DNA of 21,222 nt, taken from a virus. Position 1 is the first letter of the stretch. Each line of letters opens with the position of its first letter. The stretch is from positions 1-21,222 of IMG/VR virus record IMGVR_UViG_3300018421_000266; one strand, written 5' to 3'. Under the pieces are notes generated by a model, which saw only the letters and a program-made list of their open reading frames with translations, searched no databases and was not told where the DNA came from. Positions 18,776 to 21,222 of this stretch are shown here, in pieces. The translations under genes were made by a program, and so were the position numbers.

Positions 18776-21222
18776 TTATCCTACTCTACGTTTGCTGAAC
18801 CAACGCTTAACGTTGTTGCTAGCGGTTTTTTGTGGGCGGGTTGAGACTCCGAACTCCGCAATGTTGCGTGCCCGTGGACGAGAAGAGATTCCATAACGAA
18901 GAGCGTCATACAAGTGATCTTCTGCGGTTGTGTCTACATCCTCGGGGTTTTTCTTATCAACCGGAATAGCCGGGAGTTGTGCAATAAGATTAACGCAATT
19001 TTCAAAAATAATTAATCTAGGTTCATCTAGAAATTCATCCACAGCCAGAAGACGGTGAATCTCTTGTTTACCTGCTGCTCGTGTACCTTTACTTCTATCA
19101 GATGGACGCCACTTACATCCCTGGGCAATCATTGCTTCTGCAATACTTACAGTTGTATCTCCACGCTTGTGCCAACAAGAACTGTCGAGTACACCGTAGT
19201 TAGGTGCCCAAATCTTGTCTCGCTCTAGAACATCATGTGCAAGATCAACTGCTAGACGTTTTGATACATATAGTTCATCAACTACAAAAATCTGGTCGCT
19301 AGGTGATACTGCAAACCATAGAACCCCTGTATAACTGCCATATCCATAATCACACGCACGAAATGTTTTCCAGTTCTCAGGAACGTCAAATGATTCACAC
19401 GTATGAATCTTACGGTTGAACTCGCTGAATGCAGCCCCTTCCGAGACATCCCAATCCCCATAAAGAAGTGCTCTACGCTTTTCCTCTGGCAACGTGAGAA
19501 GTGTTTCCACATAACCACTGTTTGCCAGATATGGATTGTCACTCAAGCGGCTAGGGATAAACTGACGCTTCATCAGTGGTTGCCCTGCTTTTGGGTGAGG
19601 ATTTCCATATTCGTCAAGCGGTGGGTAAACTAGGGTTTCACCTGTTTCTATATCTGTTGCCCAAAATGGTTTACCCCACGGAGCAGGGTCAATGAACATT
19701 TTCTTGACCCATTGGTGGCCTGGACCTCCTGGGTTGGTTGTGGCCCTCATAAGGGGCTTAATGTTTGGGTTAGCGCTACGGTTACGAGATCGCAGATAGT
19801 CCCAAGCATTAGGGGTGTGCCAGTGAGTCAATTCGTCAAATGCCACATACGGGTAAGGCTGTCCCTGAAAGCGCGAAAGGTCTTCGTCACGATCACAATA
19901 GGTCATCCAGATACGGGCACCAGAACTAAACCTCCACTCTGATTTCTTCTCCGACCACTTTGCACCGGGGTCCATTTTTGGGTATAGTTCTTGAGACTTG
20001 TTGATAAGTTCACGTAGTTCGTCAGTTGTTTTACGCAGGATCAAACCAACATAATCTGATTCATTAACACCATACAGAGCATCAACTAGAATAGCGTAAG
20101 AGTTGTGTGTTACAGTAAAATTTTCTGTTACATAAAGACCATCAGGGTTACTTACAGAAATACACCTACCCTCTATAGTCCCTTTTTGTTCTACTTTAAC
20201 AACAGCTTTCTGAACAAGTCCTTTACCAAATTTACCACGCTTCTTACGTTCCATACGAAAAAACTTATCAGGATTGTCGTGCTTTATATATAAACAATAA
20301 ACCTTCTGACAAATTACTTTTGTACCGTCTTGGTCACGATAAGAACCCATCTTATCTGTAATCGTGACACATGCTCCCAAACTTCTAAACAGACTTGCTG
20401 CGTCATTTGCTAACTGTTCTGATACTGTGTAATAGTAGATCGCATTCTTGTTGGGGGCTGAGTAACCGTCGGTATCCATTAGCCCTTGAGCAACTGCCCA
20501 ACGTACCTCTGAAGAATTGATAAGATAATCCCGAGGGATAAATTTTGTTGCACTACGTGTATACATAAGTCCATAGGAAGTAAACGCGCCAACTAACTCT
20601 TCTCTATATTCTCCCCCAAAACGTATGGTATTCTTTGTGTCCCACTTGTCTGTTGGGATATACTTTTTGTAGTGCTCCTTATCATCTTCATGGCACGTTA
20701 TAGTTATTTGATTTGTCGTCAGACAGCCATCCCCAATAAACACCCCCAACAAGTAAGGATCAACCTGTACCCCTTTAGAGTGAAAATACTGCTCAGAGCA
20801 CACTGGAACTTGTGGTTTATAACCTTTTTCAAGGTACTCTGAAAGTTTTTCTGTACTGACAACCTTACCCGACGCCTCGCCAAACACCCTAACACCATTA
20901 ATCTTTCTGCCTCTGCGTGCCAGCCACGAAAACCATAAATGCTCCTTAGCAACATCTAGGTGAGTGCCATCCGAAAAGTGTACGGTCCACTTAGGAAGGG
21001 TTTCCCAGGCAAATAGATGTTTGACAGTCTGTGTACCTCCTTTTGGGTGGCATATTTCATCACCCACCCTTAAATCTTCAACCTTTACAAAGCCTTCGGG
21101 AGTTAGAATTGAGTCACCCTTTTGTACTAGCTTACCACCACCTGCTGCCCCTCCGAATAAGACTTCACGAATAGGGGATGAAAGAAACTCTGTCTGAGGG
21201 CCGGGGTTAGGTCTGAAAACAA
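18776..21222 (-). CDS. Terminase large subunit with in-frame intein (5' end cut by window edge)
   Basis: This is the ATPase/nuclease motor that packages DNA into the head. The frame is open to the right edge, so the true start is outside. Visible N-extein is 30 residues (from VFRPNPGPQTEF to GGAAGGGK) and the C-extein 441 residues, so the spliced product exceeds 471. Joining them restores Walker A GAAGGGKS. Walker B is YVAFDE (Asp 19835-19837, Glu 19832-19834), followed by the coupling motif ATTNPGGPGHQW. Nuclease acidic residues appear as RACDYGYG (Asp 19349-19351), VLDSSCW (Asp 19194-19196) and EDHLYDALRYG (Asp 18905-18907). A GTG inside the intein at 21065-21067 is not a real start, because the extein and intein frame continues upstream of it. 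The gene ends 4 bases before the portal start. Confidence 0.95.
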   Translation of the reverse strand, partial: VFRPNPGPQTEFLSSPIREVLFGGAAGGGKLVQKGDSILTPEGFVKVEDLRVGDEICHPKGGTQTVKHLFAWETLPKWTVHFSDGTHLDVAKEHLWFSWLARRGRKINGVRVFGEASGKVVSTEKLSEYLEKGYKPQVPVCSEQYFHSKGVQVDPYLLGVFIGDGCLTTNQITITCHEDDKEHYKKYIPTDKWDTKNTIRFGGEYREELVGAFTSYGLMYTRSATKFIPRDYLINSSEVRWAVAQGLMDTDGYSAPNKNAIYYYTVSEQLANDAASLFRSLGACVTITDKMGSYRDQDGTKVICQKVYCLYIKHDNPDKFFRMERKKRGKFGKGLVQKAVVKVEQKGTIEGRCISVSNPDGLYVTENFTVTHNSYAILVDALYGVNESDYVGLILRKTTDELRELINKSQELYPKMDPGAKWSEKKSEWRFSSGARIWMTYCDRDEDLSRFQGQPYPYVAFDELTHWHTPNAWDYLRSRNRSANPNIKPLMRATTNPGGPGHQWVKKMFIDPAPWGKPFWATDIETGETLVYPPLDEYGNPHPKAGQPLMKRQFIPSRLSDNPYLANSGYVETLLTLPEEKRRALLYGDWDVSEGAAFSEFNRKIHTCESFDVPENWKTFRACDYGYGSYTGVLWFAVSPSDQIFVVDELYVSKRLAVDLAHDVLERDKIWAPNYGVLDSSCWHKRGDTTVSIAEAMIAQGCKWRPSDRSKGTRAAGKQEIHRLLAVDEFLDEPRLIIFENCVNLIAQLPAIPVDKKNPEDVDTTAEDHLYDALRYGISSRPRARNIAEFGVSTRPQKTASNNVKRWFSKRRVG
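20102..21130 (-). other. Class 3 intein with LAGLIDADG homing endonuclease (343 residues)
   Basis: The element begins with Leu1 (codon 21128-21130) right after Walker A Lys and ends with His342-Asn343 before Ser+1. Block A is LVQKGDSILTPEGFVKV. Block B has DGTHLDVAKEHLW: the conserved His64 is present, the usual Thr three residues before it is Ala, and Trp66 fills the class 3 Trp position. Block F is RCISVSNPDGLYVTENF with Cys323, and block G is TVTHN with Thr341. So the W, C and T marker residues of class 3 inteins are all present while the ordinary position-1 Cys/Ser is absent. LAGLIDADG motifs are YLLGVFIGDG (intein residues 126-135) and AVAQGLMDTDGY (212-223), both with acidic residues. 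Splicing activity and endonuclease activity are inferred. Confidence 0.93.

What the first reader, a model, noticed from the sequence alone, without database searches (positions are those of the whole stretch)
20102..21130. Class 3-type intein with Leu at position 1, splitting the Walker A loop of terminase
The insertion falls between Lys and Ser of GAAGGGK/S, so an unspliced terminase should lack a working P-loop. The first residue is Leu, not Cys or Ser, which a class 1 intein could not use. The Trp (block B), Cys (block F) and Thr (block G) set known from class 3 inteins is present, with the terminal His-Asn and Ser+1. The usual block B Thr is Ala, an added deviation. This makes packaging dependent on non-canonical splicing and adds a Leu1 example to test the mechanism.
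Basis: partly seen in the sequence, partly recalled or inferred. Interest (0 to 1): 0.82.

Follow-up and report, generated by a model that had tools for sequence, protein, structure and literature searches.

The report
Ordinary class 3 intein in phage terminase
A marine-type phage's DNA-packaging enzyme is interrupted in its ATP-binding loop by a self-removing protein element of a well-described kind (a class 3 intein); its unusual-looking first residue, leucine, also occurs in several related inteins and does not change how it should work.

Summary
Window 20102-21130 (minus strand) encodes a 343-aa intein inside an open terminase large subunit frame, exactly between Lys and Ser of GAAGGGK/S. 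Leu1, Trp66, Cys323, Thr341, His342, Asn343 and Ser+1 are as stated. Trp, Cys and Thr fall at the class 3 positions in alignments with 12 and then 126 diverse relatives, and the profile matches solved class 3 inteins. A confident model (pLDDT 93) shows a Hint domain carrying a LAGLIDADG endonuclease.

The novelty claims mostly fail. Leu1 occurs in 6 of 127 non-redundant inteins, including two other terminases with the identical GGAAGGGK|L junction. An 84%-identical intein at the same site has Val1. Block B position 7 is not conserved in class 3 inteins (Thr in only 18 of 127, Ala in 5), so "Ala instead of Thr" is not a deviation. Class 3 inteins in terminases, and P-loop Lys|Thr insertions, are published.

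79 of 80 close terminase relatives, plus phages HMO-2011 and CRP-1, have an empty site. The intein (84%) is more conserved than its host protein (68%) between two carriers, which suggests lateral movement. Most likely an active class 3 mobile intein: new member of a known kind, low interest.

The parts
18776..20101 (-). C-extein: terminase large subunit from Ser+1 onwards (rest of P-loop, Walker B, nuclease)
   Evidence: PHROG 979 terminase large subunit, E 1e-46; 63% identical to TerL of Puniceispirillum phage HMO-2011 and Roseobacter phage CRP-1
21131..21220 (-). N-extein (end part): terminase ending in Walker A residues GGAAGGGK
   Evidence: Translation; the complete N-terminus is in the overlapping record
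20102..21130 (-). Class 3 intein, 343 aa, Leu1 to Asn343
   Evidence: Translation, alignments, PDB profile match, structure model and fold search
21128..21130 (-). Leu1, non-nucleophilic first residue
   Evidence: Leu1 also in L086, L104, L140, L145, L223, L246
20939..20941 (-). His64, block B position 10
   Evidence: Invariant in 127 representatives
20933..20935 (-). Trp66, block B position 12 (W of WCT)
   Evidence: Invariant in 127 representatives
20162..20164 (-). Cys323, block F position 4, predicted initiating nucleophile (C of WCT)
   Evidence: Invariant in 127 representatives
20108..20110 (-). Thr341, block G position 5 (T of WCT)
   Evidence: Thr in 126 of 127 representatives
20102..20107 (-). 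His342-Asn343, C-terminal splice residues
   Evidence: Invariant in 127 representatives
20231..20776 (-). LAGLIDADG homing endonuclease domain (about residues 119-300; motifs LLGVFIGDG and AQGLMDTDG, Asp kept in both)
   Evidence: Pfam LAGLIDADG_3 E 9e-8 and Hom_end; fold match to PI-SceI and I-DmoI

Best explanation
This is a full-length mobile class 3 intein in the terminase large subunit of a phage related to HMO-2011. Inferred mechanism: Cys323 (F:4), with His64 (B:10) and Thr341 (G:5), attacks the Lys(-1)-Leu1 peptide bond directly and takes the N-extein as a thioester. The N-extein then moves to Ser+1. Asn343 cyclises and frees the intein, and an acyl shift makes the Lys-Ser bond that restores GGAAGGGKS. 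Leu1 is only the leaving-group residue, so it needs no nucleophile. The central LAGLIDADG nuclease spreads the element to empty terminase P-loop alleles. Shown here: insertion, signature residues, predicted fold, empty sites, and purifying selection. Inferred: splicing, its chemistry, and homing.
For: Exact in-frame insertion in a conserved site. W, C, T, H, H and N at the class 3 positions. The profile aligns both splicing halves to gp41-1 engineered with the WCT motif (6riz, E 2.7e-21) and to the class 3 DnaB inteins 6rix and 6bs8 (E 8e-19 and 3e-18), with W, C and THN aligned. Structure model mean pLDDT 93.4, pTM 0.92, matching PI-SceI over its length and 6riz, 6riy and 6bs8 in the splicing domain. 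Between the window's virus and L084: intein dN 0.099, dS 1.72 (ratio about 0.06), with splicing and endonuclease parts both constrained; intein 84% aa identical against 68% for the C-extein and 42% for the N-extein.
Against: No splicing experiment. dS is close to saturation, so the dN/dS ratio is rough. Position 1 is not wholly free in class 3 inteins: A1G abolished trans-splicing of the AceL NrdHF intein (PMC7891396), so Leu1 tolerance is inferred only from recurrence in nature.
Confidence: 0.93

Rival explanations
1. A decayed, non-splicing intein (pseudo-intein) in a defective phage.
For: A class 3-like pseudogene is known (Arsp-FB24 Arth_1007, PMC3196547). The window is a metagenomic fragment.
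Against: All catalytic residues are intact, while the known pseudogene lacks Cys F:4 and His B:10. dN/dS is about 0.06. The terminase is uninterrupted on both sides and sits in an intact structural module (portal, head protein). The same allele is in three records.
Confidence: 0.03
2. [quoted passage not shown]
For: Position 1 lacks a nucleophile, as in class 2 inteins (PMC4031507).
Against: Known class 2 inteins are KlbA orthologues with Ala1, Cys+1, Ser at G:6 and Asp at F:4. Here G:6 is His, F:4 is Cys, +1 is Ser, and the WCT set is complete.
Confidence: 0.02
3. The intein is kept as a regulatory switch for packaging (conditional splicing), not as a plain selfish element.
For: Insertion in the P-loop makes activity depend on splicing. 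A DnaB intein of M. smegmatis that responds to oxidative stress is known (PMC6195587, title and abstract).
Against: Nothing in the sequence specifically supports it. Patchy distribution (1 of 80 close relatives) and an intact endonuclease fit a selfish mobile element.
Confidence: 0.05

Closest known systems
Class 3 inteins with LAGLIDADG endonuclease (for example mycobacteriophage TerL and Bethlehem DnaB inteins; Deinococcus Snf2)
   Same: WCT motif at B:12, F:4 and G:5, no required nucleophile at position 1, His-Asn end, Ser/Thr+1, central homing endonuclease
   Different: Leu at position 1 (uncommon but recurrent); host is an HMO-2011-type terminase
P-loop Lys|Thr terminase inteins of mycobacteriophages (TerL1-a, PMC5050341)
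   Same: Same insertion point between the invariant Lys and the hydroxyl residue of Walker A in a terminase large subunit
   Different: Different terminase family (nearest to Terminase_6, PF03237, rather than terminase_1); the TerL groups that paper names with class 3 are TerL1-c and -e
Intein of IMG/VR contig 3300031162_000424 (L084)
   Same: Same site in a related terminase, 343 aa, 84% identical, same catalytic residues
   Different: Val at position 1; terminase C-extein only 68% identical
Thiohalocapsa phage LS06-2018-MD04 gene TPMD04_11 (OP947166.1, L086)
   Same: GGAAGGGK|L junction, class 3 signature, Leu1, Ser+1
   Different: About 35% identical intein, longer (367 aa); annotated as 'DarB-like antirestriction'

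Membership tests
Class 3 intein | No required Cys/Ser/Thr nucleophile at position 1 | tested here: met
   Leu1
Class 3 intein | Trp at block B position 12 | tested here: met
   W66, invariant column; aligned with solved class 3 inteins
Class 3 intein | Cys at block F position 4 | tested here: met
   C323, invariant column
Class 3 intein | Thr at block G position 5 | tested here: met
   T341
Class 3 intein | Block B His10, terminal Asn, Ser/Thr/Cys+1 | tested here: met
   H64, N343, Ser+1
Class 3 intein | Hint splicing fold | tested here: met
   Model pLDDT 93.4; Foldseek hits 6riz, 6riy, 6bs8, PI-SceI
Class 3 intein | Falls in the class 3 clade to the exclusion of class 1 inteins | not tested
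   The tree held only relatives with the WCT set; no class 1 outgroup was included
Class 3 intein | Splicing through a block F branched thioester | not testable with these tools
   Needs expression and mutants
LAGLIDADG homing endonuclease intein | Two LAGLIDADG motifs with catalytic Asp | tested here: met
   LLGVFIGDG and AQGLMDTDG; Pfam LAGLIDADG_3; fold match to PI-SceI and I-DmoI
Class 1 intein | Cys/Ser/Thr at position 1 | tested here: not met
   Leu1
Class 2 intein (KlbA type) | Ala1, Ser at G:6, Asp at F:4, Cys+1 | tested here: not met
   Leu1, His342, Cys323, Ser+1

The most novel reading that the evidence does not exclude
Bulky aliphatic residues (Leu, Val, Ile, Met) at position 1 are a property of class 3 inteins in glycine-rich terminase-type P-loops (11 of 32 against 5 of 95 elsewhere). 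They may compensate for the flexible GGGK N-extein by keeping the strained scissile bond that the Cys attack needs.
Probability: 0.15. Interest if true: 0.35.

Novelty: new member of a known kind. Interest (0 to 1): 0.17.

Why it matters
It adds a well-supported natural class 3 intein with Leu1, and a close Val1 partner at the same site, so position-1 tolerance could be tested in one scaffold. It also adds relatives of HMO-2011 to the phages that carry such elements. It does not change the understanding of intein mechanism.

Tried and rejected
Considered Leu1 as a unique feature: rejected by recurrence. Considered Ala at B:7 as a deviation: rejected. Considered class 2 and pseudo-intein: rejected on residues and dN/dS. 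Pfam and NCBIfam gave no splicing-domain model above its cut-off for this protein (Hint_2 below cut-off); recognition came from relatives. Tori & Perler 2011 is not held, so whether Leu1 was listed there could not be checked. A paper search for HMO-2011 together with intein found nothing.

Full report
Observation. The minus-strand frame 18776-21220 is open without a stop. The stretch 20102-21130 translates to 343 residues from Leu1 to Asn343, between Lys and Ser of GGAAGGGK|S. An overlapping IMG/VR record (identical to the window over 8,087 bases) carries the complete 899-aa open frame, so the window simply cuts the terminase N-terminus.

Host protein and site. The C-extein is a terminase large subunit (PHROG 979, E 1e-46), about 63% identical to TerL of Puniceispirillum phage HMO-2011 and Roseobacter phage CRP-1. 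A portal/head-tail adaptor protein and a major head protein follow. Of the 80 best terminase relatives in IMG/VR, 79 have an uninterrupted Walker A loop and one is the same virus. HMO-2011 and CRP-1 read GGSAGGGKSYAML. The insertion is therefore exact, and an unspliced protein would have its P-loop broken between the invariant Lys and the following Ser. That packaging needs splicing follows from general knowledge of P-loop ATPases; it was not tested.

Class. In an alignment with 12 other inteins, His64, Trp66, Cys323, His342 and Asn343 are invariant and Thr341 nearly so. A larger sample was gathered with DNA patterns taken from the endonuclease motifs, not from the splicing motifs, plus phage hits. 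It gave 174 full-length inteins, 127 after clustering at 70% identity. B:10 is His, B:12 Trp, F:4 Cys, G:6 His and G:7 Asn in all 127, and G:5 is Thr in 126. This is a sample, not a census: scans were cut at 600 candidates and 80 loci, and full-length profile matching favours typical members. A profile of the first alignment matches the WCT-engineered gp41-1 intein and the class 3 DnaB inteins of M. chimaera and M. smegmatis in both splicing halves, with W, C and THN in register. The predicted structure (mean pLDDT 93.4, pTM 0.92) matches PI-SceI over its length, and 6riz, 6riy and 6bs8 in the splicing domain.

Leu1. Position 1 in the 127 representatives: Ala 83, Gly 7, Ser 7, Leu 6, Val 6, Glu 6, Met 3, Asp 3, Gln 2, Pro 2, Ile 1, Cys 1. 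Besides the window, Leu1 is found in the terminases of Thiohalocapsa phage LS06-2018-MD04 (L086) and contig L104, both GGAAGGGK|L, in viral contigs L140 and L145, and in two near-identical Bacteroidaceae loci (L223, L246). On a tree built without residue 1, Leu needs five changes, at least two of them forced by well-supported branches. The nearest inteins have Val1 (L084, 84% identical, read as V; the M printed is a start-codon artefact of the translation) and Ile1 (L100, 50%). So Leu1 is an uncommon, recurrent, interchangeable residue.

Block B position 7. In the sample the position is Cys 50, Asp 21, Thr 18, Gly 16, Ser 14, Ala 5, others 3. PMC7891396 states that class 3 inteins show no conserved residue there, that members with Gly or Asp are functional, and that Ser65Ala at this position of AceL NrdHF only slowed splicing fourfold. 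It is not a deviation.

Mobility and selection. Between the window's virus and L084 the intein is 84% identical in amino acids, the C-extein 68% and the N-extein 42%. Intein dN is 0.099 and dS 1.72. Splicing and endonuclease parts are both constrained, and the intein is more alike than its host gene, which suggests lateral transfer or homing. dS near saturation means the event is not recent and the ratio is rough. Both LAGLIDADG motifs keep their Asp.

Literature. Class 3 inteins, their WCT motif and the Cys F:4 mechanism are established (PMC4031507, PMC3196547, PMC5222942, PMC7664689). 1,701 class 3 inteins had been collected by 2020, 82.5% with LAGLIDADG motifs (PMC7891396). TerL is the commonest intein host in mycobacteriophages, with a 'classic' Lys|Thr P-loop insertion, and some TerL inteins are class 3 (PMC5050341). 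The present case is a new member of that known kind.

Residual interest. Aliphatic residues at position 1 are commoner at GG-type P-loops (11 of 32) than elsewhere (5 of 95; Fisher p 1e-4). The test ignores relatedness, and the window's closest terminase clade accounts for part of it. It is recorded as a lead only.

Noticed in passing
L142 (IMGVR_UViG_3300001520_000018), intein start: An intein with the full class 3 WCT set but Cys at position 1 (GTQK|CQPLYSKVLTPD ... THN|T); seven other representatives have Ser1. These are mixed class 1/class 3 N-termini.
   Followed up: no
phage records OP947166.1, NC_070999.1, NC_070998.1, NC_070950.1, NC_028972.1, NC_028999.1, NC_070936.1: Intein-bearing terminases and helicases are annotated 'DarB-like antirestriction' in these records, although sister records name several of the same genes terminase or helicase; probably an annotation error spread through the shared intein.
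   Followed up: no
L086, L104, L100, L101, L103, L122, L117, L123, L085, L140 and window: Aliphatic position-1 residues are enriched in class 3 inteins at GG-type P-loops (11 of 32 against 5 of 95).
   Followed up: partly
window 18776-21220 against L084: Intein 84% identical while C-extein is 68% and N-extein 42%, pointing to lateral movement of the intein between related terminases.
   Followed up: yes
L087, endonuclease motif 2 (GLMDIGGC): Parabacteroides phage PF672P1 intein has lost the Asp of its second LAGLIDADG motif, so its endonuclease may be dead while the splicing residues remain.
   Followed up: no
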